Shown: positions 5,441-47,965 of the stretch, piece after piece
Layout: each line of letters opens with the position of its first letter
Numbering within the stretch: the first letter of the stretch is position 1
DNA from: an uncultured Bacteroidota bacterium
GTDB lineage: Bacteria; Bacteroidota; Bacteroidia; Bacteroidales; P3
Assembly (NCBI GenBank): GCA_902784465.1
Contig: CACZUZ010000034.1
Location: 1-55,147 of the forward strand
Length of the DNA: 55,147 bases
Reading direction: 5' to 3'
Translations under genes and position numbers: made by a program
Notes under the pieces: generated by a model
What the model saw: only the letters and a program-made list of their open reading frames with translations
The model's database searches: none
Told to the model about the DNA's origin: nothing

Positions 5441-5600
5441 ATCCCAACATCCGAAAATCCAATCATCCAATCATCCAATCATCCGAAAATCCAATCATCC
5501 GAAAATCCAATCATCCGAAAATCCGAAAATCCAAACATCCGAACATCCGAAAATCCAAACATCCGAACATCCAAACATCCGAACATCCGAACATCCGAAA
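5441..5600. repeat. Tandem array, 20 units of 8 bp (ATCCRAAM-type)
   Basis: The array consists of 20 consecutive 8-bp units. All but the first begin ATCC; the variants are ATCCGAAA, ATCCAATC, ATCCAAAC and ATCCGAAC (first unit ATCCCAAC). It starts 54 bases before the panB start and ends four bases from the stop codon of the upstream gene at 5605, so it fills the intra-operon junction. The same words recur in inverted orientation at 9257-9292. Confidence 0.95.
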
Positions 5601-5604
5601 ATCG

Positions 5605-6876
5605 CTACTCTAAGGCTTCGTCGTCTTTGTAGCGGCTGTCTTCTTCCTGCTGCTCTTCAATCTCGTCGACTTCATCCTCTACAATACGCATCAATGCACG
5701 CAAGTCTTTCTTTATCTCGTAGTTGCCGTGTTTGTCAAGACGGTAGGCTTTCCAGTGTTTTCCCTCGGCGGCAAAAGAGCCATCCTCCATATCGGTCTTG
5801 CACTCATAGAAGTAGTCGTCCAGCTCATTAGGTTGTATTCGTTTACCGAGGAAGATGGTGTCGAGCTGCGACACATTGATAGCAGCCTGTACGCTGAGCG
5901 AGACCTTCGAAGGCATCTTCTTGGTTGTAAGGGCTTTGTATTCTACACCTTTGCTAGAATATTTCTTTCCGAAAATCCTGATTTTGTTGTCCAGTTGCTC
6001 CTGCGTGACTGGGAAACGGACATATATCGAATCAGGCAACACTTTCGAACACTCGCCGAACTCGCGACGTATGCTGCTGTGAAGCACCACATAACCTACC
6101 TGAACTATATATTGTTTCTTGTGTGGTACCAGGAAGTAGTCCTCGACAATAGGACGGTACTCTAGATGTTCCTCGATGGTGAAACTGACATCCGACGGAC
6201 AGCTGTCCTTGGTGTCTTCGACGCTGTAGAGAGAACCCCGCTTCATGAAGACCGAAGCATAGTAGCCTCTGACGGTGGTGTCCATCGAGGGGACGATACA
6301 GCCTCGGGCTGCGCCCAGGCATGCGTCAGGGTCATCAGCGAAAGTGACCAGTACACAGTTATCCAGATCGATGCTGCCGTTGAGTTTGCGTCGGCTTTCC
6401 GGCAGGTCGGCACTACGGTAAGCCTTCCGTGTCACCGGTACCTCGTAGCGCACCATCTCCACAGTGTCGCCATGGCAGTGGCATCGAATAGGGTTTACTG
6501 CATAGCGTATGGGGAACGGAGCATAGCAACGTCCTGCGAAATAATTATATACATTCGCGACACGCTCTTCCGACAGGCTCTCACTGCTGCTGTAGCCCTC
6601 TATCGTCATGGAATACATCCTAGGGTTGTGGCGATCGGCGAAGGTTACGCGGTATGCCGAGTCGAGCCAGTCGAGTGCATCCACCCCGTATGTGGCTGAG
6701 CTCCCACTGAAGTTAATCAAAAGGCAAAACTTCTCAGGATGAGTCATGGCCTTTTGCATATTCTTTATCGGCTTGGCACTCGGGATGTAAATACCTGTTT
6801 GGGCATTCAGATGCATTCCGCCGGACAGGAAGGCTGCCAGCAGGAATGAAAGGACGGTGAAACGGTGTTTAGACAT
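5605..6876 (-). CDS. Secreted protein of unknown function with OmpA-like segment and acidic tail
   Basis: A 423-residue protein with a signal peptide ending near LNAQ (residue 26). I do not recognise a named family. A segment near residues 85-115 (MTIEGYSSSESLSEERVANVYNYF) resembles the helix-loop part of OmpA-type peptidoglycan-binding domains, but the rest does not follow. Further on there are paired cysteines (CHCHGD) and a Lys-rich middle. The C-terminus is highly acidic (EDEVDEIEEQQEED). It lies directly downstream of the MoxR ATPase with 20 bases between, where a DUF58 protein would usually be found. Periplasm or outer membrane is the likely location. Confidence 0.6.
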   Translation of the reverse strand: MSKHRFTVLSFLLAAFLSGGMHLNAQTGIYIPSAKPIKNMQKAMTHPEKFCLLINFSGSSATYGVDALDWLDSAYRVTFADRHNPRMYSMTIEGYSSSESLSEERVANVYNYFAGRCYAPFPIRYAVNPIRCHCHGDTVEMVRYEVPVTRKAYRSADLPESRRKLNGSIDLDNCVLVTFADDPDACLGAARGCIVPSMDTTVRGYYASVFMKRGSLYSVEDTKDSCPSDVSFTIEEHLEYRPIVEDYFLVPHKKQYIVQVGYVVLHSSIRREFGECSKVLPDSIYVRFPVTQEQLDNKIRIFGKKYSSKGVEYKALTTKKMPSKVSLSVQAAINVSQLDTIFLGKRIQPNELDDYFYECKTDMEDGSFAAEGKHWKAYRLDKHGNYEIKKDLRALMRIVEDEVDEIEEQQEEDSRYKDDEALE

Positions 6877-6896
6877 GGCTTGGGAAGGACTCCTTG

Positions 6897-7859
6897 TTAT
6901 TTTGCTTGTTTTTTGATTTCCTCGATAACGGTGTCGGTCGATATACCCTCGGCTTCTGCGAAATAGTTGCGTACAACACGATGGCGAAGCACCTCGGCAG
7001 CAACATGGTCCACATCCTCGCGGTCAGGAGAGTATTTGCCCGAGAAGGCAGCGTAGGTCTTGGCACCCATCACCAGATACTGCGAGGCACGAGGACCGGC
7101 ACCCCACGAGAGGTACTTCTTCGCCAGCTCGTTGCCTTCGCGGTCAGGGCGTGTGGATGATGACAGTGACACTGCATACGACACCACATTGTCGGGCACT
7201 GGCATACGACGGATGACCGACTGAAGATGCATTATCTCGTCGGCCGACAGGACTACACCCACTTGTGCCACGCTGTCGATGGTGGTCTGCTTCACGATGT
7301 CCACCTCTTCGTCGAACGAGGGGTAGTCCATCTTGATATTCAGCATGAAACGGTCGAGCTGAGCCTCTGGAAGCGGATATGTACCCTCCTGTTCTATAGG
7401 GTTCTGGGTAGCGAGGACAAAAAATGGGTCTTCGAGACGATAGGTGTGGCCGCTAACGGTAACCGAATGCTCCTGCATGGCCTCGAGCAGTGCCGACTGC
7501 GTTTTGGGCGGAGTGCGGTTAATCTCATCGGCAAGCAGGATATTGGCAAACACCGGACCTTTGACGAAACGGAAGTTACGGCTCTCGTCGAGGATTTCAG
7601 AACCCGTAATATCGGAAGGCATAAGGTCGGGAGTAAACTGTATACGGCTGAACGATAGTCCCAACGCTTTGGACAAAGTGTTTACCATAAGGGTCTTGGC
7701 CAGTCCAGGCACACCGACGAGAAGGCAGTGGCCACCGGTGAAAATCGAGACCAGTAGACTCTCAACGGCCTTATCCTGGCCGATAATGACTTTACCTATT
7801 TCGTTTCGCAGTTGTTGGTATTTTTTTACCAAACCATCAAGAGCTTCAATATCGGACAT
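6897..7859 (-). CDS. MoxR-family AAA+ ATPase
   Basis: A 320-residue protein of normal MoxR length. Walker A is GVPGLAKT, Walker B is LLADEINR, sensor 1 lies in VLATQNPIEQEGTYPLPEAQLDRF (cited in part), followed by the helical lid with SSSTRPDREG. MoxR ATPases act as chaperones that insert cofactors or assemble protein complexes, usually with a DUF58 and von Willebrand factor A partner. None of those partners is adjacent here. The start is set at ATG 7859 (MSDIEAL); upstream in-frame sequence encodes the 8-bp repeat array and is not conserved-looking. It sits in the run guaB, PPIase, SurA-like, MoxR. Confidence 0.9.
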   Translation of the reverse strand: MSDIEALDGLVKKYQQLRNEIGKVIIGQDKAVESLLVSIFTGGHCLLVGVPGLAKTLMVNTLSKALGLSFSRIQFTPDLMPSDITGSEILDESRNFRFVKGPVFANILLADEINRTPPKTQSALLEAMQEHSVTVSGHTYRLEDPFFVLATQNPIEQEGTYPLPEAQLDRFMLNIKMDYPSFDEEVDIVKQTTIDSVAQVGVVLSADEIMHLQSVIRRMPVPDNVVSYAVSLSSSTRPDREGNELAKKYLSWGAGPRASQYLVMGAKTYAAFSGKYSPDREDVDHVAAEVLRHRVVRNYFAEAEGISTDTVIEEIKKQAK

Positions 7860-7867
7860 TATTAATT

Positions 7868-7899
7868 GTTTGAATGTGTTATTGTTTGATTGCTTGAGT
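7868..7899. repeat. Tandem array, 4 units of 8 bp (ACTCAAGC family, inverted)
   Basis: On the minus strand the units are ACTCAAGC, AATCAAAC, AATAACAC and ATTCAAAC. The unit order closely matches the left arm at 36206-36237, including the odd third unit. The array fills the junction between the SurA-like stop (7916) and the MoxR start (7859). Confidence 0.8.
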
Positions 7900-7915
7900 T
7901 TCCGGAGCGGTCTCC

Positions 7916-9253: not shown

Positions 9254-9256
9254 TTG

Positions 9257-9319
9257 TTGATTTTCGGATGATTGGATTTTCGGATGATTGGAATTGTTGA
9301 TACGTTGATTCACCATTCA
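9257..9319. repeat. Tandem repeat patch: 8-bp (GGATTTTC/GGATGATT) then TACGTTGA and ATTCAC words
   Basis: Units GGATTTTC and GGATGATT alternate twice at about 9261-9292. A TTGTTGA/TACGTTGA pair and two ATTCAC-type 7-bp units (about 9305-9318) follow. Three of the window's repeat words therefore meet here. The patch lies exactly between the stop of the 9320 gene and the SurA-like start at 9253. Confidence 0.75.
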
Positions 9320-11425: not shown

Positions 11426-11459
11426 TTATTTCTTTTGATTATCAATTCTCTATGGTCAA

Positions 11460-12932: not shown

Positions 12933-12949
12933 AATAATAAAATTTCGTG

Positions 12950-12986
12950 CAAAAATAGCAAAAAACTTCGGAATAGCGAAAACAAA
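12950..12986 (-). promoter_or_regulatory. Bacteroidota-type promoter of guaB
   Basis: On the minus strand a TTTG (12986-12983) precedes TATTTTTG (12957-12950), matching the -33 TTTG / -7 TAnnTTTG consensus. The spacer of 25 is longer than usual. Transcription would start about 10 bases before ATG 12932. Confidence 0.55.
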
Positions 12987-13105
12987 AAAATACAAGAAAT
13001 ACAACTGACTAATTTACCGATAATAAAGGCTGTATTCTTGTATATAAAAAGAGAGATTATGCCGTGAAAAAGATGTTGTTTTATGCTTCATTAAAAGAAA
13101 ATTCG

Positions 13106-13113
13106 TAGTTTTG
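13106..13113 (+). promoter_or_regulatory. -7 element TAGTTTTG immediately before the outer-membrane gene
   Basis: TAGTTTTG matches TAnnTTTG and ends only four bases before ATG 13118. The transcript would begin at or beside the start codon, giving a leaderless or nearly leaderless mRNA. No good TTTG is seen upstream at normal spacing. Confidence 0.45.
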
Positions 13114-13117
13114 CAAA

Positions 13118-14358
<1,241 letters not shown>

Positions 14359-14362
<4 letters not shown>

Positions 14363-16359
14363 AAAAAATATTCATCGTACTAATAACCTTATTTTTAGTC
14401 CTTTCCGCATCAGCCAAAGAGAAGAGTTATACCCTGTTCTCCCCCGACGGACGCCTTAAAACGACTATCGCCTCTATCGACAATACCATCACCTATAACC
14501 TAGTGGTCGATAACGACACCCTCCTGCTCCCCTCCTCCATTGGACTCGACCTAGGTGGTGCGGCATTCCTGCCGCACATAAAAATCTCTCGCCGCAGCGT
14601 CAACGAGACCATATCTTCGCCCTTCTCGCGCCAAGCAACAATGCACGACCACTACAACGAGCTGACCCTGAACCTATCAAAGGATATATGCCTCGTCTTC
14701 CGTGCCTACAACGAAGGCATCGCCTACCGTTTCGTGTGGGATGGCAAACCAATGAAAGTGAACAAGGAAACTGTTGAATACCATTTCCCCGGCGACTGGA
14801 CAACCTCGGCTGCATACGTCTCCAATTTCGACTCGACAAACCATGCATCCCAATACCAGTCTTCGTTTGAGAACCAGTACAAAACAATCCCTCTCTCCCA
14901 ATTAGATACTCGACGTCTTTGTTTCCTTCCCTTGATGGTTCATGCACCTAACGGACTGAAAATCTGCATCACCGAATCCTCCCTATCCGACTACCCCGGC
15001 CTCTATCTCAAATCCACCTCTCATACAATCAAGCAATCAAACAACCATGCAATCCTAGTCGGGGAGCATGCTCCGCTTCCCAAGCGTGTGGAGCAGGGCG
15101 GACACAACAACCTGCAGCTTCTTGTCAAGGAACGTGAGGACTATATCGCCGAAATGGACAACACGAAGCACTTCCCTTGGCGCATCATGATGGTCGGTAC
15201 GGCAACTGATATAGCAATGAACAACATGAGCTATCTCCTCGGTGAGCCTTCCCGTCTGGACGACATCAGCTGGATCAAGCCCGGCAAGGTGGCTTGGGAA
15301 TGGTGGAACTGCCTCAATATCACTGGCGTCGACTTCGAGGCGGGCTTCAACAACGACACCTACAAGCACTACATCGACTTCGCCTCTAAGTATGGCATTG
15401 AGTACGTCATCCTCGACGAGGGCTGGGCAGTAAACAAGCAAGCCGACCTCTTCCAGGTGGTGCCTGAGATAGACCTTCCCATGATTGTCAACTATGCCCG
15501 CGAACGCAATGTCGGCATCATCCTTTGGGCTGGATACTATGCTTTCGACCGCGACATGGAGCGGGTCTGCAAGCACTACAGCGAGATGGGTGTCAAGGGC
15601 TTCAAGATAGACTTCATGGATCGCGACGACCAATTGGTCACCGACTTCTACCGTCGCGCCGCCGAGACCTGCGCCAAGTACCACCTCATCGTCGACTTCC
15701 ACGGTGCATTCAAGCCCGCCGGTCTCAACCGAACATATCCCAACGTGCTCAACTTCGAAGGCGTCTTCGGCCTCGAACAGATGAAGTGGGCTCCCACCTC
15801 CGTCGACCAGATGCGTTACGATTGCGAGATTCCTTTCATCCGCCAAGCCGCAGGCCCGATGGACTACACGCAGGGCGCCATGCTCAACGGCGGACGCTGG
15901 AACTACAACCCCTGCTGGATGCAACCCATGAGCCAGGGAACCCGCTGCCACCAGCTTGCTCTCTACATCGTCCTCGAATCACCGCTCAACATGCTATGCG
16001 ACTCGCCCGACCACTACGACCGCGAACCCGACTACACCCGCTTTGTGGCTGAGATACCGACGGTATGGGACGAGACGCGCATCCTTCAAGGCGAGGTGGG
16101 CGAATACATAGTCACCGCCCGCCGCAAAGGCAACACCTGGTACATCGGCGGAATCACCAACTGGACGGCCAGAGATGTGGATATTGTACTACCGCTTATC
16201 TCCCTTAACATCAGCAACATTGAACTGTACACCGATGGTATCAATGCACATCGCCAGGGTAGTGACTACCGACACGAAACGCCCGAAGCGGTCTTGCCGG
16301 TCATGACAATCCACATGGCTCCCGGTGGGGGATTTGTGGCGAAAATCAAGGTTCAATAA
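14359..16359 (+). CDS. Glycoside hydrolase family 97 protein, probably retaining type
   Basis: A 666-residue protein with a signal peptide (MKKIFIVLITLFLVLSASAKE). The N-terminal GH97 super-sandwich domain starts at YTLFSPDGRLKTTI. The catalytic barrel has WEWWNCLNITGVDF, YVILDEGW, ILWAGYY, GFKIDFMDRDDQ and LIVDFHGAFKPAGL. The Asp in KIDF is residue 418, where retaining GH97 alpha-galactosidases carry their nucleophile; the inverting SusB alpha-glucosidases lack an Asp there. I infer a retaining alpha-galactosidase-like enzyme in the periplasm. A small beta domain ends the protein. An 8-bp repeat patch (15025-15056) interrupts the N-domain as SHTIKQSNNHAI. No SusC/SusD pair is nearby. Its end overlaps the convergent nuclease-family gene by seven bases. 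Confidence 0.9.
15025..15056. repeat. In-gene tandem patch, 4 x 8 bp (AATCAAGC family)
   Basis: AATCAAGC, AATCAAAC, AACCATGC and a degraded AATCCTAG unit lie within the GH97 gene. This is the same word family as 14159 and 25504, more decayed here. Confidence 0.65.
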
Positions 16360-17183: not shown

Positions 17184-17193
17184 AATCGATTAT

Positions 17194-18153: not shown

Positions 18154-18166
18154 AAAAATGTAAGGT

Positions 18167-18661: not shown

Positions 18662-18803
18662 TTGATTGTTTTTGCTACATTTGACGACCAAGTCCAAAAA
18701 TCCTTACATTATTGTTCTTTTTTTCTAGAATCTTCTGCTATTTTGTGCTTTTTTTAAATAAAACAAAAAAGTTGAAATGATTATTAGATTAAACCACTGA
18801 TTG

Positions 18804-20257: not shown

Positions 20258-20301
20258 ATTAGACTTTTATTAGACCCATATTAGACTCATATTAGACCCA
20301 T
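20258..20301. promoter_or_regulatory. Four 11-bp direct repeats (ATTAGACYCAT), operator-like
   Basis: ATTAGAC begins at 20258, 20269, 20280 and 20291, an exact 11-bp spacing. Three units are ATTAGAC followed by CCAT or TCAT; the first is ATTAGACTTTT. One helical turn per unit places all copies on the same DNA face, as in multimer-binding operators. They lie about 100-150 bases upstream of the inferred start of the lipoprotein/nucleoside hydrolase operon. Confidence 0.6.
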
Positions 20302-20615: not shown

Positions 20616-23561
20616 TTATTCGTTAAAAACGCTGGTGAGGTGGTGGCGGCCGCTGCCAAGGGTACGGTTCTCCCAGCCATGATGGCTAGTGGGCACCATC
20701 ACCGTGGCCGTGGTGTTGGGCGGGATGAGGATGTCCCACTCGAAGCGGTTGCCGTTGCGGCGCCAGTTGCTCTCTATGCGGCCCAGCACCGAGTTGTAGG
20801 AGCAGTTGACATAATCAAGCCCATCAATAATGTAAGGCTTCAGTATAAAGGAGTTATTGTCAAGTTTGATTGTACGAATGCCGGCAAGGTATTCGTAATA
20901 CCATATAATAAGGTCGCCGAGGAGCATCACGTGATTGCCTGAGTTCATCGAGGGGTCGCCGGTGTCACCGTTCCATAGCTCCCAGATAGTGGTGGCTCCT
21001 CGTTTCACCATATAGCCCCAGCTGGGGTAGGTGGTGTCGGTGGCGATTTTTAGCGCCAGGTCGCCGCGCCCATGTTCCGTGAGGGTACGCATAAGGTGCT
21101 GAATGCCTACAACGCCCGTGGAGACATGACCGCCAAAGTCACGCTCGGTCTTGTCGATAATGTTTGCGAGAACCTTTTGACTAATGCTTGATTGATTGTA
21201 ATGATGAAGGACGGGGCTGCCACGCACAATCAGCTCTACGCGGTCCACAGGACCTTGTACCATGCCGAAGGCCAGCGGCAGAAGGTTGGCGGTGACGGTG
21301 TTGTGATCGTATCGGCCGGTGATGGTGTCGAGGTAACGGGCATTGTAGGCCAAGCATACGCTGTCAGCCAGATTGCCGAAATAATGCATATCATCGTAGA
21401 GCCCAAGATGATAGGCAAAGTCAACCATAATATCGCAAAGATGATAATAGTACGGCGTCGATAGATTAGCAGGCCACGTCATGCGGTTAGTGTCCTTGGT
21501 ATGTATCAGCTCCGGACTCTCGGGCGGCACGCACCAGTCGCCGTAGGTGTCGCGAATTAGGATGCCGTCTTTCAAATAATACTTCTTCATGTGTAGCATC
21601 CAGCGTTTCATCGCGTCATAATGCTTTTCTATGGGACGGATGTCGCCAAAACGCTGCCAAACCATATCGGCAACGGTGATGAAGGCTCCAGGCCATGTCA
21701 TGTTGTCGGTGTAGTTGCGCCAATAGGCGGGCACCACGTCGGGCAGGGAACCGTTTTCGAACTGACTGTCGGCGAAATCCTGCAGCCACTTGGAATAGAG
21801 TAGGTGGTTGTCGAAGATGTAGCTCTCGCCGTAGCATCCTGTTGTGCGGTCACCCGTCCAGCCCATACGCTCGTCGCGCTGTGGGCAGTCGGTGGGCATG
21901 GAGCGGTAGTTGCCTCGGATGCCCCACGTGGCATTGCGATAAACCGCATTGATAATCTCATTCGAGCACTCGAAGCTGCCAATCATCGGCATCTCGTCGT
22001 ACATCACCAATCCCATGAAATTTTGGAGTGCAGGCGTCTCGCCTGCATCACACTTTAATCCCGTTATCTCCACATATCGAAATCCGTGGTAAGTGAATTG
22101 AAAACTGAATTTCCCTTCACGCAAGGAGCCCGACGCTTTCAGCGTCGGTGTATCTTTTCCAACGATATATCTATCCGTACATTCGGCGCTGCGTAAATTA
22201 TCTGTATACAGCGTGCTGTCGGCATTGAGCAACTCAGCATAACGGAACGTTATGGTATCTCCACTCTCACAATCATGCAATATCCTATTAAAGAATTCCA
22301 AACTCCCCACCATATTCTGCCCCATATCGAGAATCCATTTGTCTCCCTTCTGGTACATAGCCACTGGCTTCAATTCGTGCTGCACCTTGATGTTGGGGTT
22401 GGGCTGCGGCGTAAGGAGCTGCATCGGGTCGGGACGATTATATGTTGATATGTTTATACGTTGATATGTTGAAAGGCTGGCCACGGGCCACTCGCCATTG
22501 TCGGCACGATGGCGGGGGTTGTAGATGTCCTCGCGGTACATGTTTTGTCGGTCATAGTTATCGACTACGGGGAACCAGTCGCGGTCATCGTAGTGCGGCA
22601 GGAATGCCGCACCTCCTAATTCAAGGCGGGCGTCGTAGGTCTCACCGTCGAACTCGTTAGCCTTGCGGATGGGGCCGCGATTGGTAATCTTCCAACTGCC
22701 GTCGCTTATTATCGTGTCAACGGTTCCGTCCTTGTAGGTAACCTCCAACTGCATCAGCAGTTGCGGCAGACCATAGTGTGCAGCATGGTTTATGCCGCAC
22801 CATTCCAGATAGCTGGTATCATGCCGCACCGTGGTGAAACGCCCGGGGGCAAGGATGACTCCAACAGCGTTCTCATCTCCTTCGCAGAGGAATTCGGTAA
22901 CATCGTATGCATTGAAATAAATGCGTCGCGTATAGTCGCTGAGTGCCGGTTTCAGTAGCGCGTCTGGTGCCACCTCCTTGCCGTTAATAAAGGCGGAATA
23001 GACACCCAAACCACTGATATACAATCTAGCCCTGTTGATATCCTTTCGCAGAGGAAACTCCTTGCGCAGATAGCGTGCGGCAACTACTGTGTGCCCGTTC
23101 ACATCATCATCGTCGAAGTCGCGACCTATCCAGTGAGCCTTCCAGTCATCGGGCGAGAGGAGGCTTATCTCAAAGTATTGCACATCGCTTTCGAGCCTTT
23201 TCTTCTTGTTGTGGCTGCCGTAAGTGACAGTGGTATACACCCTCCACCAGCAACGGTCTCTACTCTTCAACGCCTTACCCTCGTAAGGAATAGACATTGA
23301 AGCATTCAAACATTCCTTTGAGTCCCACAAATCTCCGATGCCCCTCTTAGCGTTCTCTTCGCTGCTGGCCACGATGATGCGGTAGTCCGTCTGTACGACA
23401 TCGTCAACAGATGCTTCATAACACCAGCTGAACCTCGGCTCATTTGTAGCCAAAGGCATCGACCCATCCTGTCCCTCAACAGTGAGCGAGATTATCCTGA
23501 CTCTGCTCCCACATGCGGAGAAAAGCAGAACCAACAAAATAATAGCTATAATGTGCTTCAT
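20616..23561 (-). CDS. Glycoside hydrolase family 78, alpha-L-rhamnosidase-like lipoprotein
   Basis: A 981-residue protein of normal GH78 length. The leader ends LLFSAC, a lipobox with Cys17. An N-terminal Bac_rhamnosid_N-type beta domain (RLYISGLGVYSAFINGKEV, cited in part) precedes the alpha/alpha-barrel with MPTDCPQRDERMGWTGD, the conserved acid-bearing stretch, near residues 550-570. TIWELWNGDTGDPSMNS follows, as do a C-terminal beta domain and GRHHLTSVFNE. The expected reaction is release of terminal alpha-L-rhamnose from plant or bacterial glycans at the cell envelope. A 4 x 8-bp repeat patch (22441-22472) is read through as STYQRINISTYN. No SusC/D pair is adjacent. Confidence 0.92.
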   Translation of the reverse strand: MKHIIAIILLVLLFSACGSRVRIISLTVEGQDGSMPLATNEPRFSWCYEASVDDVVQTDYRIIVASSEENAKRGIGDLWDSKECLNASMSIPYEGKALKSRDRCWWRVYTTVTYGSHNKKKRLESDVQYFEISLLSPDDWKAHWIGRDFDDDDVNGHTVVAARYLRKEFPLRKDINRARLYISGLGVYSAFINGKEVAPDALLKPALSDYTRRIYFNAYDVTEFLCEGDENAVGVILAPGRFTTVRHDTSYLEWCGINHAAHYGLPQLLMQLEVTYKDGTVDTIISDGSWKITNRGPIRKANEFDGETYDARLELGGAAFLPHYDDRDWFPVVDNYDRQNMYREDIYNPRHRADNGEWPVASLSTYQRINISTYNRPDPMQLLTPQPNPNIKVQHELKPVAMYQKGDKWILDMGQNMVGSLEFFNRILHDCESGDTITFRYAELLNADSTLYTDNLRSAECTDRYIVGKDTPTLKASGSLREGKFSFQFTYHGFRYVEITGLKCDAGETPALQNFMGLVMYDEMPMIGSFECSNEIINAVYRNATWGIRGNYRSMPTDCPQRDERMGWTGDRTTGCYGESYIFDNHLLYSKWLQDFADSQFENGSLPDVVPAYWRNYTDNMTWPGAFITVADMVWQRFGDIRPIEKHYDAMKRWMLHMKKYYLKDGILIRDTYGDWCVPPESPELIHTKDTNRMTWPANLSTPYYYHLCDIMVDFAYHLGLYDDMHYFGNLADSVCLAYNARYLDTITGRYDHNTVTANLLPLAFGMVQGPVDRVELIVRGSPVLHHYNQSSISQKVLANIIDKTERDFGGHVSTGVVGIQHLMRTLTEHGRGDLALKIATDTTYPSWGYMVKRGATTIWELWNGDTGDPSMNSGNHVMLLGDLIIWYYEYLAGIRTIKLDNNSFILKPYIIDGLDYVNCSYNSVLGRIESNWRRNGNRFEWDILIPPNTTATVMVPTSHHGWENRTLGSGRHHLTSVFNE
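22441..22472. repeat. In-gene tandem array, 4 x 8 bp (TATGTTGA/TACGTTGA)
   Basis: TATGTTGA, TATGTTTA, TACGTTGA and TATGTTGA lie inside GH78, encoding STYQRINIST on the minus strand. Related GTTGA words appear at 9293-9305 and 45609-45640. Confidence 0.8.
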
Positions 23562-23794: not shown

Positions 23795-25882
23795 ATGTCA
23801 CATAAACATCACATTACTGAAAATCACGAGCACAATGAGTGCTGCTGTGAACATCATCATAAACACCATGATCATCATCATGAGCATGAGCATCATGAAC
23901 AACACCATGAGCATCATCACGAACACCATCATGAACACCATCATGAACACCATCACGATGAGTCGCCCAAGCGCCAAATTGCAATCATTATTGCCGCCGC
24001 AGTGCTTCTAGGTGTCGCCGTGCTTATCGAGCATACCTGTTCCCTGCCTATATGGCAGATGTTGCTCGTATACCTTGTCCCATACCTCCTCGTCGGCTTC
24101 GGAACCCTGAAAGAAGCTGCCGAGGGCATAGTCCACGGCGAGGTCTTCAACGAGCATTTCCTCATGTCCATAGCCACCATAGGCGCTCTCGCCATCGGCT
24201 TCATGCCTGGCGCCGAGACCGAGTTCCCCGAGGCGGTCTTCGTCATGCTCTTCTTCCAGGTTGGCGAACTCTTCGAGGGATACGCCGAAGGGAAGAGCCG
24301 CGAAAGCATCTCTCATCTGATGGACATCCGTCCCGACACAGCCAGAGTGTTGCATGACGGAGCAGAAAAGGTCGTCTCACCCGAAAAAGTCGCCATCGGT
24401 GACATCATCATTGTTCGTCCGGGCGAGAAAGTGCCGCTAGATGCCGTCATTGTCGAAGGCTCTACAGCCCTCAACACCATGGCACTCACAGGCGAAAGCA
24501 TGCCGCGCGAGGTTGCTGCCGGCGACGAAATCATTTCAGGATGCGTCAACATCAGCGGAGTAGTAAAAGCCCGAGTCACCAAAGACTACGAAGAAAGCAC
24601 CGTGTCGAAGATTATCGACCTTGTCGAGAATGCCGCCGAGCACAAGTCGAAGAGCGAGAATTTCATCAGCCGTTTTGCGCGCATCTACACCCCCGTCGTT
24701 GTTTTCGCCGCCATCCTTATCGCCATCGTGCCACCTATAATCACAGCATCCCCATTCACAACGTGGCTCTACCGAGCGCTGATGTTCCTTGTAGTGAGTT
24801 GTCCTTGCGCTCTGGTAATCAGTGTGCCACTCTCGTTCTTCGGTGGCATAGGCGGAGCCTCGCGTCGCGGAATACTCATCAAGGGTGCCAACTACATAGA
24901 TGCCCTCGCCAAGGTTGACACCGTGGTCTTCGACAAGACCGGCACGCTCACGCACGGCCGCTTTGCCGTCGAAGCCGTCCATCCGGAAGAGTACGACGAA
25001 CACCATCTGCTGCACCTTGCAGCCCATGTGGAGCATTTCTCGACCCATCCCATCGGAGCCGCCCTGCGTGACGCCTTCCCCGACGAGGCCTCCGACGGCT
25101 GCCAGGTGACCGATGTCACCGAAGTTGCGGGACAAGGCATCACCGCCACCATTTTGAACGGAAAACGGAAAACGGAAAACGGAGAACGAATTGCAATTAA
25201 TGTTGCTGTAGGCAATGCCAAGATGATGAAAACGATTGGTGTCGAATGGCATGACTGCGAGCTGAGAGGCACCATTATCCATGTGGCCATCGACGGCAAA
25301 TATGCAGGCCATATCGTCATCAACGACCAGATAAAGGGCGACAGCTCGCAAGCGATAGACGACCTGAAAGCCATCGGAGTACAACGCACCGTCATGCTCA
25401 CCGGAGACAGCGAAGAAGTGGCAAAGGAAGTTGCACGCAAACTCAACATCGACGAATACCACGCCCAGCTCCTCCCCTCCGACAAAGTCGACTGGATGAA
25501 AAAACTCAAGCACTCAAACAATCAAGCACTCAAGCATTCAAGCAATCAAGTCGCTTTTGTGGGCGACGGCATCAACGATGCTCCTGTGCTGGCTCTCGCC
25601 GACGTTGGAATCGCCATGGGTGGCTTGGGCAGCGATGCCGCCATAGAGGCTGCTGACGTGGTGCTCATGGACGACAAGCCATCGAAGATAGCGGTAGCCA
25701 TCAACATGGCGCGCCGGACGCTGAGCATTGCCAAGCAGAATGTTGTCTTCGCCATCGGCGTGAAGGTTGCCGTCCTGCTGCTCGCCGCCTTCGGCATAGC
25801 TTCCATGTGGATGGCGGTATTCGCCGACGTGGGAGTCACCGTCCTCGCCGTCCTCAACGCCATGCGCACAATAAGAAGATAA
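23795..25882 (+). CDS. Zn2+/Cd2+/Pb2+-type P1B ATPase with His-rich N-terminus
   Basis: A 695-residue heavy-metal exporter. Residues 1-55 hold about 30 histidines, with a CCC near 17, in repeating EHHH units. There is no GMTCxxC heavy-metal-associated domain. Further on are the phosphatase TGES motif, SCPC (Cys336-Pro-Cys338) in the metal-transport helix, DKTGTLT with Asp380 as phosphorylation site, THPIG with the N-domain His-Pro, and GDGINDAP at 590-597. The Lys in GVKVAVLLLAAFG and the Asp in AVFADVG are the P1B-2 (Zn/Cd/Pb) determinants. Two tandem arrays are embedded: GGAAAAC 7-bp units (residues 456-465, N-domain) and ACTCAAGC-type 8-bp units (570-586, just before VAFVGDGIND). The frame stays open through both. 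Confidence 0.93.
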   Translation: MSHKHHITENHEHNECCCEHHHKHHDHHHEHEHHEQHHEHHHEHHHEHHHEHHHDESPKRQIAIIIAAAVLLGVAVLIEHTCSLPIWQMLLVYLVPYLLVGFGTLKEAAEGIVHGEVFNEHFLMSIATIGALAIGFMPGAETEFPEAVFVMLFFQVGELFEGYAEGKSRESISHLMDIRPDTARVLHDGAEKVVSPEKVAIGDIIIVRPGEKVPLDAVIVEGSTALNTMALTGESMPREVAAGDEIISGCVNISGVVKARVTKDYEESTVSKIIDLVENAAEHKSKSENFISRFARIYTPVVVFAAILIAIVPPIITASPFTTWLYRALMFLVVSCPCALVISVPLSFFGGIGGASRRGILIKGANYIDALAKVDTVVFDKTGTLTHGRFAVEAVHPEEYDEHHLLHLAAHVEHFSTHPIGAALRDAFPDEASDGCQVTDVTEVAGQGITATILNGKRKTENGERIAINVAVGNAKMMKTIGVEWHDCELRGTIIHVAIDGKYAGHIVINDQIKGDSSQAIDDLKAIGVQRTVMLTGDSEEVAKEVARKLNIDEYHAQLLPSDKVDWMKKLKHSNNQALKHSSNQVAFVGDGINDAPVLALADVGIAMGGLGSDAAIEAADVVLMDDKPSKIAVAINMARRTLSIAKQNVVFAIGVKVAVLLLAAFGIASMWMAVFADVGVTVLAVLNAMRTIRR
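25160..25187. repeat. In-gene tandem array, 4 x 7 bp (GGAAAAC)
   Basis: Three GGAAAAC units and one GGAGAAC lie in the N-domain of the Zn ATPase and encode NGKRKTENGER. A change by one unit would shift the frame and truncate the pump. Confidence 0.9.
25504..25551. repeat. In-gene tandem array, 6 x 8 bp (ACTCAAGC family)
   Basis: The units are ACTCAAGC, ACTCAAAC, AATCAAGC, ACTCAAGC, ATTCAAGC and AATCAAGT. Six units make 48 bp, a multiple of three, so the insert is in frame and adds 16 residues (HSNNQALKHSSNQ) immediately before the conserved hinge motif of the pump. Confidence 0.9.
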
Positions 25883-31829: not shown

Positions 31830-31842
31830 CCCGGATTTGTCA

Positions 31843-31877
31843 ATTCACGATTCACGATTCACAATTCACAATTCAAT
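31843..31877. repeat. Tandem array, 5 x 7 bp (ATTCACG/ATTCACA)
   Basis: ATTCACG twice, ATTCACA twice and ATTCAAT fill the junction between the TolC stop and the adaptor start. The ATTCAC word recurs at 9305-9318, 45642-45662 and, inverted, 47931-47965. Confidence 0.85.
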
Positions 31878-31879
31878 AT

Positions 31880-32920: not shown

Positions 32921-33019
32921 CTAGAAGATCTAGAAACTCTAGACAATCTAGATAATCTAGACAATCTAGACAATCTAGACAATCTAGACAGTCTAGAAAA
33001 TCTAGAAAACCTAGAAAAA
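32921..33019. repeat. Tandem array, 11 x 9 bp (CTAGACAAT)
   Basis: Eleven 9-bp units start CTAGA; CTAGACAAT is the main type and the edge units are degenerate (CTAGAAGAT, CTAGAAAAC). Each junction forms the palindrome TCTAGA. The array fills the adaptor-RND junction. In RNA the repeated palindromes could form many alternative small hairpins. Confidence 0.95.
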
Positions 33020-33031
33020 AAAACAGACAAC

Positions 33032-36000: not shown

Positions 36001-36211
36001 TATGATTCCTATGGCCACCTCTAATGCCGAAGGCTCTGAGATGTGGACCACCATGGGTCTCGTCGTCATCGGCGGTCTCACCGTCTCCACCTTCGTCACC
36101 CTCTTCATCGTGCCGACCCTCTACGCTATCTTCAACCGCAAAGGCGACATCGAAAAGAAGGAGAAGGAACGCAAGAAATTTGTCTTCATGAATATCAATC
36201 TAAATGATTGA
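33032..36211 (+). CDS. RND-family efflux permease (HAE1 / AcrB-like)
   Basis: A 1059-residue inner-membrane antiporter of normal length. It has the first helix (KPITTGLIFVAVIILGLFSL), porter subdomains, the 4th-helix region with SLASLTVAIGMVVDDAIVVLENI carrying the Asp-Asp proton relay (cited in part), the large second loop, and the C-terminal helix set with GLLGLILLIGIVVKNGIVLVDYIN (cited in part) including the relay Lys. It expels hydrophobic compounds using the proton gradient. The final codons overlap the left arm of an 8-bp repeat pair. Confidence 0.95.
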   Translation: MAIYKTAINKPITTGLIFVAVIILGLFSLSKLPIDQMPEMDPPYVTVMTTYAGANASEIETNITKIIENSLNSVDGLKNITSTSKDNISVVTLEFEWGSDIDESLNDIRSYVDLLYDNLPDGVSRPMILKLNSSAMPIMVYGFTAKESYSGLDRILEDNVVNELNRIDGIGNITVSGAPQRYVYIDLDPKQLDAYGISLEAVGNAISANNLDLASGTVKMGKEQYQMRVKGEYIESSEIADIAVTTTMTGKQVFVRDLATVRDTIKDLSLDEKINRQDGARIIISKQTGANTVAIARQVKSEMQRIQKTMPPDIEATLIRDGSEEIINAVNGLTSSIFYALLFVVLVVLIFLGNWRSTIIIALTIPISLVTSFIYLLIADSSLNIISLASLTVAIGMVVDDAIVVLENISKHIDRGENPREAAICATNEVWTSVIATTLVLVAVFVPLTMLPGMMGIFMKEMGWIITIVVCVSTTAAITLIPMLSSKLLKERPFFFKKEDEEAWEAKHQRNLYHRTISRAFDAIDAGYANILRWCLNHKRITLLISLIFFVVTIFPLLSGAIGLDFMKEQDNGSISISAELQRGTRIEETLKTARHMENDIYDILGDDVVVVSTSAGSNDDAGFAALFNSTTNNKISITVRCTKKYDREETIFEMQEKLRRCFAEYPELVTFQVNQGGMMGGGSNNSLSIEVYGYDFNQTTQFTQELKKRIEENVPGARDTKISRDEDRAELKIEFDKQKLALHGLSGSAVAMYVRNRVNGMAAGYLKEDGEEYNIVVRLREEYRSSISDINQLSIPTPTGKIIKLEELAKVEEYWCPPTIERKNRQRYLTLTVMPFRTSLQELAQNVQKEIDQMDVPADIHYALAGNYKDQQESSRDMLILGLLIIMLVYIVMASQFESFAKPFIIMFSIPFAISGVVLMMFITGNNLDMIGLLGLILLIGIVVKNGIVLVDYINLMRERGIALNEAIAISGQSRLRPVLMTAFTTILGMIPMATSNAEGSEMWTTMGLVVIGGLTVSTFVTLFIVPTLYAIFNRKGDIEKKEKERKKFVFMNINLND

Positions 36212-36298
36212 ATGTGTTAATGCCTGAATGTTTGAGTGCTACGCTGTCTTATTAATGCGTCAGCCCACTCAAACATTTAAACATTCAAACAATCAAAC
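36206..36298. repeat. Inverted pair of 8-bp tandem arrays (ACTCAAAC family)
   Basis: The left arm (36206-36237) reads GATTGAAT, GTGTTAAT, GCCTGAAT, GTTTGAGT. The right arm (36267-36298) reads ACTCAAAC, ATTTAAAC, ATTCAAAC, AATCAAAC. The arms are inverted relative to each other around a 29-base centre and can fold into a long imperfect hairpin between the RND stop and the next gene. Confidence 0.8.
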
Positions 36299-36307
36299 AA
36301 TAACAAA

Positions 36308-36601: not shown

Positions 36602-36608
36602 GCTGTAT

Positions 36609-38009: not shown

Positions 38010-38066
38010 TTATAATCGTCCCCTCACCAAAGTGATTGATTGTCAAAGAGACACCTTATTGAAAAG

Positions 38067-38105
38067 CAAAGAGCGCCGGAATGCATCCGACGCTCTTTGT
38101 TGTAA
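38067..38105. terminator. Bidirectional terminator between convergent T9SS genes
   Basis: CAAAGAGCG (38067-38075) pairs with CGCTCTTTG (38091-38099), with an inner GGATGC-like fold; T-rich sequence flanks the plus side. It serves the SGNH gene on the plus strand and the large T9SS gene on the minus strand. Confidence 0.8.
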
Positions 38106-38150
38106 GGTTTTTTGTTTTATTGCTGCATCAGCCAATTAGCAACTGACCTC

Positions 38151-40997: not shown

Positions 40998-41028
40998 AGG
41001 CTTTATAATGTTTAAGTTATAGCTCTGG

Positions 41029-42276: not shown

Positions 42277-42303
42277 AAGGAGTTCTTGTTATGGGTTAAA
42301 TAA

Positions 42304-43905: not shown

Positions 43906-43926
43906 TGCTCAATGGTTTGTTTGTAA

Positions 43927-45588: not shown

Positions 45589-45608
45589 TTATCTTGATGT
45601 TTTAGTAT

Positions 45609-45662
45609 AAGTTGATAAGTTGATAAATCGTTAAGTTGATAATTCACCATTCACCATTCACC
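45609..45662. repeat. Tandem arrays: 4 x 8 bp (AAGTTGAT) then 3 x 7 bp (ATTCACC)
   Basis: AAGTTGAT twice, AAATCGTT, AAGTTGAT, then ATTCACC three times. The patch fills the junction between the antiporter stop (45669) and the CtpA start (45588). Confidence 0.85.
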
Positions 45663-45668
45663 AACAAT

Positions 45669-47921
45669 TTATCTTGTTGTGAATTTGCTGATTTCCAATT
45701 CTTCGGGCGAGACAAACCATACTACGTCGTTCTCCTGGAATACCGTTGTCGAACGGGGATTGAGTATCTGGCGACTGTCTCGCTCGATGGCGATAATCAT
45801 GGCGTGATAATGTTGAGAGAAGCGCGACTGCGATATGGTTTGGCCAAGGAACGGATTGGAGTCGTGAACCACCAAACGGTAGATATTAAGCACATTGTCG
45901 CTATGGTCGTGTATCAACATGTCAGGCTCTACCTCGAGAACGCTGCGAAGGTGAGATATCTGGTCCTCGCTGCCCATCACCGACAGACGGTCGCCAGGCA
46001 GAATCAGTGCCTCCTTGGCCGGCAAATCATATACCACACCGGCACGCTCTATCGACACTACATTGATGCCGTAATCTTCGCGGAAATTTGTCTCCATCAG
46101 CCTTTTGCCTGCAAATGGCGAGTACTGGGTCACCGGTATCCTCTCCAGATAGAAATTGTTCTCCAGCAGCGTCGGCATCTTGAACGACTGCTGCGACTGC
46201 CTTGAATTGAAATTCTCCACAAACTGGTTCTCGATACGTTGATAGAAATTGATTGTTCGTTTTGAGAACGTCAACATCATGACAACGAAGATGGTGAGAA
46301 TGACAAGGAATCCAACGGCGAGGTGTATGTAGCTACCGATGACCAGGCCGATGAAAAAGAGAGCCAAGAAATAGCGCAACAACAGTACCGGAATGACAAT
46401 AGCCTGACTATATTCGCGAGAATCGAGCAACTCCTTAATCTTCTTTCTGTTCACATTACGTACGGCCAACGCCCAAACGAAGGGTAACATTATGCCCATC
46501 GTCAGCATCATACCCAACAGGTTGCCCCAGAAAGAGGGTGTTCCGGCCGACGTGGTAAACACCGAATTAAGGAAAGGCTTCAACAAGGATAAGGAGAGCA
46601 ACCATATAGCCGTATTGATGGCTCCATACAGCACTATCGACGAGAATTGTTTTTTAAGGAACTGCCTTACCGACCTCGTTTTGTTGGTCTGCTTGGCCGA
46701 GTCGCTGTACCGCTCCAGTGCATCCTTCACCTTTTGTGGTATAAGCGGCTCCACCTTGGCATAGAAAGGATTGGCCCCTTTAATCATATAAGGTGTCACG
46801 AATGTGGTGACTATCGAGACAGATACAATGATTGGATAGATGTCGGGATTGAAAATGCCAGGGTCGAGCGTCAATCCCAGTCCTGCTATGATAAAGGAGA
46901 ACTCACCTATCTGACAGAAACAGAAGCCCGACTGCACTGCCGTCTTGAGGTCCTTACCCGACAGGATGACGCCCAGCGTTGCGGCCTGCGACTTGAAAAA
47001 AATCACCGTGGCAGCGATGACAAGGATGGGGACGATGTATTTGACCAGAATATGAGGGTCTACCAACATACCCACCGAGACGAAAAAGACCGCACAGAAG
47101 AGATTTTTGATAGGCGTAATGATGCGGTGAATAACATCAGCCTCAATGGTTTCAGCCAAAATGGCTCCCATCACGAAAGCACCCAATGCCGTAGAGAAAC
47201 CCGCGTATGAGGCCAACACCACCATTCCGAAACAGAGCCCTACCGCCACGATGCAGAGTGTCTCCTCGGTCATGTACCTGCGCATCCAACGCAAAAAAGT
47301 GGGGATGAGGAAAATACCGAAAGTGAACCACACTATGAGGAAGAAAACCAGCTTGACAAGACTCATCGCCAACTCGCCACCGTTGAAACTCTTACTAACC
47401 GACACTGTAGAGAGGATAACTAACAGCAACACAGCTATCATATCCTCGACGACAAGCACAGCGGTGACCGAGGATGTGAACTTCTGTTGTTTCAGTTTCA
47501 AGTCATCGAACGACTTGATAATGATGGATGTGGATGAGATTGAGAGCATACACCCCAAAAAGACACATTCCATCGAGCCCCAGCCCAGCAAACGACCCAC
47601 GCTGGAACCAATCAAAAACATGATTGCCAACTCGGTCAGCGCAGTTATAGCTCCCGTCGAGCCCACCTTCTTCAACTTCTTGATACTAAACTCCAAACCC
47701 AAAGCAAACATCAGGAACACAATTCCGATATCGCTCCACACATGCACATTGGCGACATCCTTCACGGCAGGGAACCACTGGAAATAAGGGCCTATGAAAA
47801 AGCCTGCAACGATGTAGCCAAGCACAAGAGGCTGCTTTAACCATTTGAACACCACGGTGATGACACCAGCAGTGATAAGTATTATGGCCAAGTCAAGAAA
47901 AAGGGGTGGCAAAGAGGACAT
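45669..47921 (-). CDS. CPA2-type cation:proton antiporter with tandem RCK_C domains
   Basis: A 750-residue protein. The N-terminal Na+/H+ or K+/H+ exchanger domain (about 1-390) has 11-13 helices, including GYIVAGFFIGPYF and FLMFALGLEFSIKKL typical of KefB/CPA2. A second hydrophobic section lies near 430-550. Two RCK_C/TrkA_C-like domains follow (about 605-675 with FAGKRLMETNFREDYGINVV; 685-750 with NPFLGQTISQSRFSQHYHAMII, cited in part). No Rossmann RCK_N domain is present, so ligand sensing differs from KefC. It controls ion or pH balance in the inner membrane. Confidence 0.88.
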   Translation of the reverse strand: MSSLPPLFLDLAIILITAGVITVVFKWLKQPLVLGYIVAGFFIGPYFQWFPAVKDVANVHVWSDIGIVFLMFALGLEFSIKKLKKVGSTGAITALTELAIMFLIGSSVGRLLGWGSMECVFLGCMLSISSTSIIIKSFDDLKLKQQKFTSSVTAVLVVEDMIAVLLLVILSTVSVSKSFNGGELAMSLVKLVFFLIVWFTFGIFLIPTFLRWMRRYMTEETLCIVAVGLCFGMVVLASYAGFSTALGAFVMGAILAETIEADVIHRIITPIKNLFCAVFFVSVGMLVDPHILVKYIVPILVIAATVIFFKSQAATLGVILSGKDLKTAVQSGFCFCQIGEFSFIIAGLGLTLDPGIFNPDIYPIIVSVSIVTTFVTPYMIKGANPFYAKVEPLIPQKVKDALERYSDSAKQTNKTRSVRQFLKKQFSSIVLYGAINTAIWLLSLSLLKPFLNSVFTTSAGTPSFWGNLLGMMLTMGIMLPFVWALAVRNVNRKKIKELLDSREYSQAIVIPVLLLRYFLALFFIGLVIGSYIHLAVGFLVILTIFVVMMLTFSKRTINFYQRIENQFVENFNSRQSQQSFKMPTLLENNFYLERIPVTQYSPFAGKRLMETNFREDYGINVVSIERAGVVYDLPAKEALILPGDRLSVMGSEDQISHLRSVLEVEPDMLIHDHSDNVLNIYRLVVHDSNPFLGQTISQSRFSQHYHAMIIAIERDSRQILNPRSTTVFQENDVVWFVSPEELEISKFTTR

Positions 47922-47930
47922 GTTCTATTG

Positions 47931-47965
47931 GTGAATTGTGAAATGTGAGATGTGAGATGTGGGAT
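47931..47965. repeat. Tandem array, 5 x 7 bp (GTGAGAT; inverted ATTCAC family)
   Basis: GTGAATT, GTGAAAT, GTGAGAT, GTGAGAT and GTGGGAT lie just before the antiporter start codon at 47921. On the opposite strand they read ATCTCAC/ATTTCAC, related to the ATTCAC word. Confidence 0.8.

What the first reader, a model, noticed from the sequence alone, without database searches (positions are those of the whole stretch)
5441..47965. Dispersed family of 7-9 bp tandem arrays built from a few shared words, filling operon junctions and sitting inside genes
More than a dozen short arrays occur across the window. The same words recur far apart: ACTCAAGC/AATCAAAC (7868, 14159, 15025, 25504, 36206, 36267), GGAGAAC/GGAAAAC (13460, 25160), ATTCAC (9305, 31843, 45642, inverted 47931), ATCCGAAA/ATCCAATC (5441, 9257) and GTTGA words (9293, 22441, 45609). 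The arrays between genes lie almost only between co-directional neighbours of operons. The arrays in genes keep the frame open. Arrays at 7868 and 36206 share the same unit order, including an odd third unit, so sequence has been copied between loci. I know of no named element of this form. Similar low-complexity stretches in other Bacteroidales proteins are a vague memory that I cannot verify.
Basis: partly seen in the sequence, partly recalled or inferred. Interest (0 to 1): 0.72.

Follow-up and report, generated by a model that had tools for sequence, protein, structure and literature searches.

The report
Repeat-armed hairpin elements between genes
The short repeats scattered through this bacterium look like the arms, and the worn-out remains of arms, of small hairpin-forming genetic hitchhikers resembling those known from bacterial ribosomal RNA genes, here sitting between the genes of operons.

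Summary
The arrays are real and far above chance: 115 of period 7-9 in 453,778 own bases, 2 in two Markov shuffles, in the window and 19 of 20 other stretches. They are not one family. [quoted passage not shown] Arms are complementary beyond the null's 95th percentile at 50 of 66 IVP loci, 19 of 28 in other genomes and 19 of 25 PF13366 loci. Array period follows the protein lineage more than the genome: 9 changes on the IVP tree, at least 15 in 300 shuffles; 20 of 22 periods predicted in other genomes. Gene-less hairpins such as window 36206-36301 share arms and a core. Best reading: intervening-sequence-like hitchhikers between co-transcribed genes, decaying to gene-less hairpins and one-armed arrays. 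Limits: only 8 of 185 own arrays have a strict inverted partner; word matches to cargo arms exceed the control only when exact; the window's TCAAGC, ATCCGAAA, TCTAGA and TACACCC words have no identified cargo; movement and RNA cutting were not observed.

The parts
36206..36301 (+). Gene-less hairpin element between the RND efflux gene and the PII-like gene: 5' arm (TTGAATGTGTTAATG...TTTGAGTG), core GCTACGC...GCGTCAGCC, 3' arm (CACTCAAACATT...CAATCAAACA), period 8
   Evidence: Fold of 36206-36306 -30.6 kcal/mol, z -5.8. Core and arm motifs recur in the genome. The same junction is empty or differently filled in relatives.
32921..33018 (+). Period-9 array of TCTAGANNN between HlyD and RND genes; self-complementary
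   Evidence: TRF. Fold z -7.1. At this junction relatives have 2-21 bp, other short sequence, 9-mer arrays, a hairpin or an IVP element. Period 9 is the period of PF13366 arms, but this word was not matched to a cargo arm.
31841..31875 (+). Period-7 ATTCAC array between OEP and HlyD genes
   Evidence: One mismatch from a cargo arm of another genome, and so is its reversed control.
45607..45663 (.). Composite array between S41 protease and cation exchanger genes: GTTGATAA (period 8) then ATTCACC (period 7)
   Evidence: The period-8 word is an exact arm word of IVP locus L284; ATTCACC of L306, but its reversed control matches exactly too.
47931..47965 (.). Period-7 GTGAGAT array upstream of the cation exchanger gene
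5440..5603 (.). Period-8 ATCCGAAA array filling the junction between the KPHMT gene and the upstream gene (both on -)
   Evidence: RNA of the gene strand, 5440-5589, folds with z -4.9. No cargo arm with this word found.
7868..7900 (-). Period-8 array with the odd unit (TGTGTTAT on the + strand) at the start of the MoxR ORF; read on the gene strand (-) it is of 3'-arm type, without core; probably junction sequence
9259..9316 (.). Composite array TTTTCGGATGATTGGA / GTTGATAC / ATTCACC at the start of the PPIase ORF, probably junction
   Evidence: ATTGTTGA at 9293 is an exact arm word of L369.
13457..13526 (+). In-ORF arrays GGAGAAC (period 7) and TACACCCT (period 8)
   Evidence: AACGGAG is the exact arm word of the IVP locus L370 in G077. 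TACACCCT was not matched. 13450-13530 folds no better than shuffles.
14029..14051 (+). In-ORF CAATTTT array (period 7)
   Evidence: Exact arm word of IVP locus L333.
14161..14196 (+). In-ORF TCAAACAA array (period 8)
   Evidence: Same words as the 3' arms of the core hairpins; no exact cargo-arm match.
15021..15054 (+). TCAAGCAA array inside the GH97 gene
22438..22472 (.). GTTGATAT array inside the alpha-L-rhamnosidase gene
   Evidence: Exact arm word of IVP locus L284.
25157..25188 (+). GGAAAAC array inside the P1B-type ATPase gene, an in-frame addition relative to the nine relatives aligned
   Evidence: Exact arm word of IVP locus L367.
25504..25550 (+). TCAAGCAC array inside the same ATPase gene, before AFVGDGINDAP, in a stretch whose length also varies among relatives
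   Evidence: 25500-25555 folds little better than shuffles, z -1.2.

Best explanation
The arrays are arms, and remnants of arms, of small hairpin-forming elements that work like the intervening sequences (IVSs) of bacterial rRNA genes but sit in operon junctions of protein genes. A full element is a 5' arm of tandem 7-11-nt words, a cargo gene of about 115-155 codons (IVP or GxxExxY) and a 3' arm that is the inverted repeat of the first, about 0.5 kb in all. Shorter forms keep only the two arms and a core; one-armed arrays are the last remains. Shown: paired arms around cargo, period linked to cargo lineage, cargo downstream of a co-directional gene, and presence, absence or different filling at one orthologous junction. 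Inferred: the transcript folds, is cut (probably by RNase III) and leaves two working mRNAs, which is why such junctions tolerate it; elements spread between junctions; lone arrays derive from elements and survive inside genes where their words give no in-frame stop.
For: Arms: 50 of 66 IVP loci exceed the 95th percentile of 4006 cross-genome arm pairings, 29 exceed the 99th; twenty other genomes 19 of 28; PF13366 loci 19 of 25. RND control loci: mean score 12.2, maximum 18, n = 29. Period and lineage: 9 changes against a minimum of 15 in 300 shuffles, also when shuffled within genomes; 20 of 22 periods in the other genomes predicted by the nearest IVP, 11 of those 22 being 7; all 10 labelled of 25 PF13366 loci have period 9. 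Orientation: upstream neighbour co-directional at 112 of 119 cargo loci against 76% of gene gaps, p = 3.9e-7. IVP 5' arms G-rich and 3' arms C-rich at 57 of 68 loci. Site polymorphism: HlyD|RND holds 2-21 bp in eight of 21 genomes, 29-120 bp in seven (9-mer arrays, a hairpin or other sequence) and a 436-471 bp insert with a PF05635 match in six; G000 and G076 (93% identical RND) have the TCAAACA hairpin and the TCTAGA array on opposite sides of RND. Word link: 61 of 185 own arrays match exactly an arm word of a cargo locus in another genome, 27 for reversed words; G002 100 of 194 against 41. Core within 40 bp of an array: own 14 (2.0 expected), G002 17 (5.1 expected). Hairpin motifs: 12, 6 and 7 occurrences against 0-1 in each of three shuffles; the 5' core motif is in the sense direction 6 of 6 times. 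Folds: z -5.8 for 36206-36306, -5.0 for the IVP element L282.
Against: Only 8 of 185 own arrays (39 of 194 in G002) have an inverted partner within 650 bp, fewer than have a direct partner (43 and 42); by a looser rule about 15 and 48 in the 14 largest clusters. Word matches to cargo arms show no excess once one mismatch is allowed (own 105 against 114 reversed, G002 165 against 156). The window's TCAAGC, ATCCGAAA, TCTAGA and TACACCC words match no cargo arm. The core motif is not enriched at IVP loci (10 and 5 of 96 against 7 and 4 in far flanks), only at PF13366 loci (9 and 5 of 25 against 1 and 0), and as a bare word it is at most slightly enriched in the genome (TGCGTCAGC 18 against 14, 7, 10). 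The 3' core motif is in the sense direction only 3 of 7 times, the core being a near-palindrome. Period is not strictly fixed: the AWQKA clade has 8-11 and the own FEEL-type copy L300 has 7. The test genomes are of the same genus as the first set, and some are close to it, so the prediction is not fully independent. IVP number and array density correlate weakly over 11 genomes (rho 0.58, p = 0.06). A cargo-blind search found 10 inverted array pairs 200-1500 bp apart; 2 enclosed one and the same IVP gene, 8 another ORF, one of these the GxxExxY gene of L013. Own element L285 folds only moderately (z -1.95). In 10 distant Bacteroidota loci only 2 arm scores exceed the null's 95th percentile. About 16 low-scoring, probably paralogous matches were not fetched; the three fetched in the first set and L361 have no arms. 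No movement was seen.
Confidence: 0.65

Rival explanations
1. Plain long simple-sequence repeats: polymerase slippage with a preferred step of 7-9 nt amplifies chance seeds; no element is involved.
For: Period is confined almost to 7-9. Most own arrays are single-armed. Heptamer-dominated repeats are known from other genomes, with slippage proposed by Mrazek as cited in PMC4679880.
Against: Paired inverted arms around two gene families, period linked to gene lineage, cargo orientation. Slippage alone does not give the shared unit order with core at many loci.
Confidence: 0.18
2. Host regulatory hairpins: the arrays are mRNA-stabilising, terminator-like or protein-binding sites kept for regulating operons.
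For: Stable predicted hairpins in co-directional junctions. A translational role was proposed for TAACTGA repeats (PMC4679880 abstract).
Against: The HlyD|RND junction is nearly empty in eight of 21 genomes. About a third of own arrays lie inside ORF calls. No Rfam match in 8 sources.
Confidence: 0.08
3. REP-like elements spread by a RAYT (Y1) transposase.
For: Short palindromic cores dispersed in the genome. Y1_Tnp is found in 39 of 59 genus genomes.
Against: No Y1_Tnp match in the own genome (84% complete) although arrays and core are there. The constant core is central and the arms vary.
Confidence: 0.03
4. Retroelement of the DGR type, using an Avd-like protein and a reverse transcriptase encoded in the same genome.
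For: PF05635 resembles Avd (PMC10053308 passage). Own genome has four RVT_1 matches.
Against: G002 (98% complete, 18 PF05635 matches, dense arrays) has no RVT_1 match.
Confidence: 0.03

Closest known systems
Intervening sequences (IVSs) of bacterial 23S rRNA genes with S23p/IVP ORF
   Same: Inverted-repeat ends forming a stem, optional ORF of the same protein family, 428-444 nt with the ORF in Coxiella against 436-471 bp junctions here, patchy distribution (PMC4990558 abstract and introduction)
   Different: Here in operon junctions, next to a tRNA gene, and as arrays inside protein genes; arms are tandem arrays with lineage-linked period; many copies per genome; PF13366 as a second cargo
Long simple sequence repeats of 5-11 nt, e.g. 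TAACTGA heptamer arrays of Beggiatoaceae, cyanobacteria and some Bacteroidetes (PMC4679880)
   Same: Dispersed 7-nt tandem arrays, mostly intergenic, some in ORFs, junction presence differing between relatives
   Different: That study describes direct repeats of one word with one inverted case; a search of its main text found no 'intervening', 'S23' or 'four helix'
REP/REPIN elements with RAYT transposases (recalled)
   Same: Short dispersed palindromes between genes
   Different: No Y1 transposase match in the own genome; arms are variable arrays
Avd accessory protein of diversity-generating retroelements
   Same: Resembles PF05635 in sequence and structure according to PMC10053308 (passages)
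   Different: No reverse transcriptase match in array-rich G002

Membership tests
rRNA intervening sequence (IVS) | Located inside 16S or 23S rRNA | tested here: not met
   Elements examined lie between or in protein genes or next to a tRNA gene. No Rfam match in the window or 7 cargo loci. rRNA genes of these genomes were not examined.
rRNA intervening sequence (IVS) | Terminal inverted repeats forming a stem | tested here: met
   50 of 66, 19 of 28 and 19 of 25 cargo loci above the null's 95th percentile. For own arrays only 8 of 185 by the strict test.
rRNA intervening sequence (IVS) | IVP/S23p ORF inside (long forms) | tested here: met
   Met by selection at PF05635 loci; own L285 also matches TIGR02436 and PDB 2gsc. 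No PF05635 match on the window's contig C34, and PF13366 loci carry another gene.
rRNA intervening sequence (IVS) | Excised from the transcript by RNase III without ligation | not testable with these tools
   Needs RNA.
Long simple sequence repeats (5-11 nt) | Tandem direct repeats longer than expected by chance | tested here: met
   115 arrays of period 7-9 in 453,778 bases against 2 in two shuffles.
REP elements with RAYT | Y1 (TnpA-REP) transposase in the genome | tested here: not met
   0 matches in G000; 39 of 59 genus genomes positive. Own genome is 84% complete.
DGR (Avd-type) | Reverse transcriptase in the genome | tested here: not met
   0 RVT_1 matches in array-rich G002; 10 of 20 genomes have one, the own genome four.

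The most novel reading that the evidence does not exclude
A widespread class of mobile mRNA-intervening sequences whose cargo protein (IVP pentamer or GxxExxY nuclease) acts as a ruler: it sets the repeat period of the arms (7, 8, 9, 10 or 11 nt by lineage) while the word itself is free to change, so that arms are repeatedly rebuilt in steps of fixed length. A tamer account is not excluded: period may persist simply because arms are inherited with the gene, and concerted point changes alter words more easily than period. Arm words are indeed more alike within than between regex-defined clades, and one clade has periods 8-11.
Probability: 0.2. Interest if true: 0.92.

Novelty: new variant of a known kind. 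Interest (0 to 1): 0.74.

Why it matters
IVP is a protein without a known function, described from rRNA intervening sequences (PMC4990558 introduction). PF05635 is present in 116 of 148 Bacteroidota genomes searched, with up to 16 matches in one; whether those copies lie outside rRNA was not examined beyond ten of them. Tying its genes to paired repeat arms would explain a puzzling class of bacterial microsatellites, give IVP and GxxExxY a testable role, and show a route by which linkers of repeat origin enter conserved enzymes. The link of period to protein lineage makes a direct biochemical test possible: does the protein bind its own period?

Tried and rejected
RAYT/REP: rejected for the own genome. 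RT-dependent retroelement: rejected for G002. The core motif as the universal end of IVP elements: rejected, not enriched at IVP loci. My early impression that TCAAACA always lies on the coding strand because of a transcription-level rule: given up, co-directional intergenic arrays are balanced. His-rich period-12 repeat at 23848-23958: a coding repeat of the ATPase N-terminus, left out. Assembly artefact: rejected, because G002, G036 and G080 carry the same arrays at the RND junction in separate genomes. IVP search in the 80 named Bacteroidota loci: no hit. PDB search with a 34-residue piece: no hit. Viral contigs: three ATPase relatives, not used further.

Limits of method: gene calls come from my own greedy ORF caller; clade names come from regular expressions and misplace a few rows (e.g. 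L272, L314); the arm null pairs flanks of different genomes. One search printed 29 of 30 RND loci (L188 is missing from its output). Of 94 PF05635 matches over the cut-off (my count from its listing) 66 were examined. L275, L277, L296 and L298 were dropped before the arm count because a contig end cut a flank; 24 were not put through the count, about 16 of them low-scoring and of paralog length, and three (G006, G007, G071) the inserts at the RND junction seen. Of the matches, 30 were cut out and used, two of them with a cut flank (28 scored). Of 45 PF13366 matches 25 were examined; of the 30 loci fetched, L387, L388, L399, L400 and L401 were dropped because they are partial matches or lie at a contig end. 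Period labels needed a score of 16, so 11 of 66 and 15 of 25 PF13366 loci are unlabelled. Of the 20 genus stretches three are masked (L138, L139, L146 read as N) and several are short. Confidence in the best explanation was lowered from 0.68 to 0.65 on rereading (no excess of word matches at one mismatch).

Papers: PMC4679880 abstract, sections 3, 12 and 15, and passages; PMC4990558 abstract and introduction; PMC10053308, PMC8934634, PMC10910872 and PMC5787105 passages only; PMC11270868 and PMC5524665 search listing only (two find calls on the former failed). Mrazek 2007 only as cited in PMC4679880. All 10 paper searches are used; none listed a paper whose title or abstract start links IVP or GxxExxY genes to tandem-repeat arms, but subscription papers and preprints are not held.


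Full report
OBSERVATION. The window is contig C34 of an 84%-complete, 2.53-Mb genome in 88 contigs. TRF finds the listed arrays at the stated places. With a fixed scoring rule, the window plus 20 stretches of about 20 kb from other contigs (453,778 bases) hold 32, 62 and 21 arrays of period 7, 8 and 9, none of period 4-5, 3 of period 6 and 2 of period 10; two third-order Markov shuffles together gave 1 of period 7 and 1 of period 9. One stretch, L017, has none of period 7-9. With 20 more stretches (853,778 bases) there are 185 arrays, 64 inside ORF calls; of the 121 intergenic ones 106 lie between co-directional genes, against 472 of 619 gene gaps. 149 of 185 fall in word clusters of five or more.

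DISTRIBUTION. Density is patchy. In 80 named Bacteroidota loci (1.41 Mb) there are 22 arrays of period 7-9. In 20 stretches of same-genus genomes (283,793 bases, three masked) there are 32, of which 19 belong to one genome, G002. A larger sample of G002 (420,000 bases, including that stretch) has 194, with a largely different vocabulary. So neighbours in one genus differ in both amount and words.

INSIDE GENES. In the P1B-type ATPase the first window array is an in-frame addition relative to nine relatives; the second lies in a stretch whose length varies among them. One relative, L025, carries an ATTCACA array at another place of the same protein.

JUNCTIONS AND HAIRPINS. At the RND efflux operon, 29 genus genomes (own included) were compared around RND and 20 plus own over up to four junctions. 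HlyD|RND is 2-21 bp in eight of the 21, 29-120 bp in seven (9-mer arrays, a hairpin or other sequence) and 436-471 bp in six. The RND|PII junction in several species carries an array, a short centre and the inverted array, with different words in different species. G000 has the TCTAGA array upstream and the TCAAACA hairpin downstream of RND; G076, 93% identical in RND, has them the other way round.

In the own sample the hairpins share a 5' arm with the 'odd' TGTGTTAA unit, a core (GAGTGCT(A/G)ACGC...GCGTCAGCCACTCA) and a 3' arm. Odd unit, 5' core and 3' core occur 12, 6 and 7 times against 0-1 in each of three shuffles. The 5' core is in the sense direction 6 of 6 times; the odd unit is in the sense direction in all 7 hairpins with a core, and antisense in the 5 places without one (window 7872 among them); the 3' core, part of a near-palindrome, is sense 3 of 7 times. 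As bare 9-mers, core words are at most slightly enriched in the sample, but they are near arrays more often than expected (own 14 against 2.0, G002 17 against 5.1). The window hairpin folds at -30.6 kcal/mol, z -5.8; two in-gene arrays fold no better, or little better, than shuffles.

CARGO. The six large inserts hold PF05635 matches, the 23S-rRNA intervening-sequence protein, IVP. PF05635 has 1-18 matches in each of 20 genomes searched (own genome 6, of which 3 over the cut-off; G002 18, of which 15), and none in 14 control genomes. The own copy L285 matches TIGR02436 and the solved structure 2gsc. At 50 of 66 IVP loci the sequence before the ORF is complementary to that after it beyond the 95th percentile of 4006 cross-genome pairings. 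Twenty other genomes gave 19 of 28. Loci without arms include the conserved ~155-aa paralog (L289, L290, L291, L361); about 16 further probable paralogs were not fetched. A cargo-blind search of inverted array pairs 200-1500 bp apart in own and G002 gave 10 pairs: two enclosed one IVP gene, eight another ORF, one of which I took for a GxxExxY protein. Searching PF13366 confirmed it (G000:C13) and showed arms at 19 of 25 loci; all 10 with a measurable period had period 9.

PERIOD FOLLOWS LINEAGE. On a tree of 66 IVP proteins the 55 labelled periods need 9 changes; 300 shuffles needed 15-21, and shuffles within genomes at least 15. G002 alone has periods 7, 8, 9, 10 and 11, according to the IVP clade. 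The AWQKA clade itself spans 8-11, and the own FEEL-type copy has 7. In the other 20 genomes the nearest IVP of the first set predicted the period in 20 of 22 cases, 11 of those being 7; these genomes are of the same genus, so the test is not fully independent. Words differ more than periods, but are still more alike within regex-defined clades than between (2.4 against 3.3 mismatches for period 7). The safe conclusion is that arms and cargo are inherited together as one element; that the protein sets the period is a bolder reading.

ORIENTATION. The gene upstream of the cargo is co-directional at 112 of 119 loci against 76% of gene gaps. IVP 5' arms are G-rich and C-poor, 3' arms the reverse, at 57 of 68 loci; this does not hold for PF13366 arms, 2 of 9.

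LINK TO THE WINDOW. No PF05635 match lies on the window's contig. Exact word matches to cargo arms of other genomes are found for 61 of 185 own arrays against 27 for reversed words, and 100 of 194 against 41 in G002; at one mismatch or less there is no excess (105 against 114; 165 against 156). In the window GGAGAAC/GGAAAAC, CAATTTT and GTTGATA-type words match exactly; ATTCACC does too, but so does its reversed control; TCAAGC, ATCCGAAA, TCTAGA and TACACCC do not match. By a strict test only 8 of 185 own arrays have an inverted partner within 650 bp (39 of 194 in G002). Most own arrays are therefore single-armed, and calling them remnants is inference. The hairpin core is not enriched at IVP loci but is at PF13366 loci.

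MECHANISM. rRNA IVSs are stem-forming inserts, some with an IVP ORF, cut out by RNase III without ligation (PMC4990558 abstract and introduction). The elements here have the same anatomy in a protein-gene context. A cut between two genes of an operon would leave both messages usable, which would make co-directional junctions safe harbours. RNase III cutting, movement and the step that makes tandem words are not shown. A Y1 transposase was not found in the own genome and an RVT_1 reverse transcriptase not in G002.

BREADTH. PF05635 is found in 116 of 148 Bacteroidota genomes. In ten distant loci some arms are visible but weak; two exceed the null's 95th percentile. The conspicuous arrays may thus be a feature of some lineages.

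NOVELTY. Heptamer arrays and rRNA IVSs are both known. Ten searches of an open-access library listed no paper that links the two in title or abstract start; one figure legend lists 23S rRNA IVP among the abbreviations in a study of CRISPR-linked genes (PMC10910872 passage). I file this as a new variant of a known kind.

Noticed in passing
L286, L330, L332, L336, L358, L359, L360: The YDKSK-type IVP gene lies on the same short locus as a tRNA-Arg (CCT) gene in all seven genomes, behind a gene whose end I recall as resembling IF-2: a copy that looks vertically inherited, with arm words drifting around it.
   Followed up: partly
L065 9979-9997, L069 6665-6693, L070 5391-5409: Three Flavobacteriaceae loci carry short A+T-rich period-7 arrays directly before the MoxR match, the same junction as the window array at 7868.
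   Followed up: no
L061 422-9991: An uncultured Bacteroidales contig has five period-8 arrays of AACTGAAT-type words, another vocabulary.
   Followed up: no
window 23848-23958: His-rich period-12/36 coding repeat in the P1B ATPase N-terminus, apparently unrelated to the arrays.
   Followed up: no
G000:C42, C21 (two places), C14: The own genome has four reverse-transcriptase (RVT_1) matches; array-rich G002 has none.
   Followed up: no
L226 7357-7458, L228 917-1005, L229 15104-15152, L224 18457-18515 (G002): A separate dispersed hairpin family around CCGTATCAACTCCTACC-like words in G002.
   Followed up: no
window 20258-20301: Period-11 array ATTAGACTCAT between two minus-strand genes, outside the 7-9 class; period-11 arms occur in two AWQKA-type IVP loci.
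   Followed up: no
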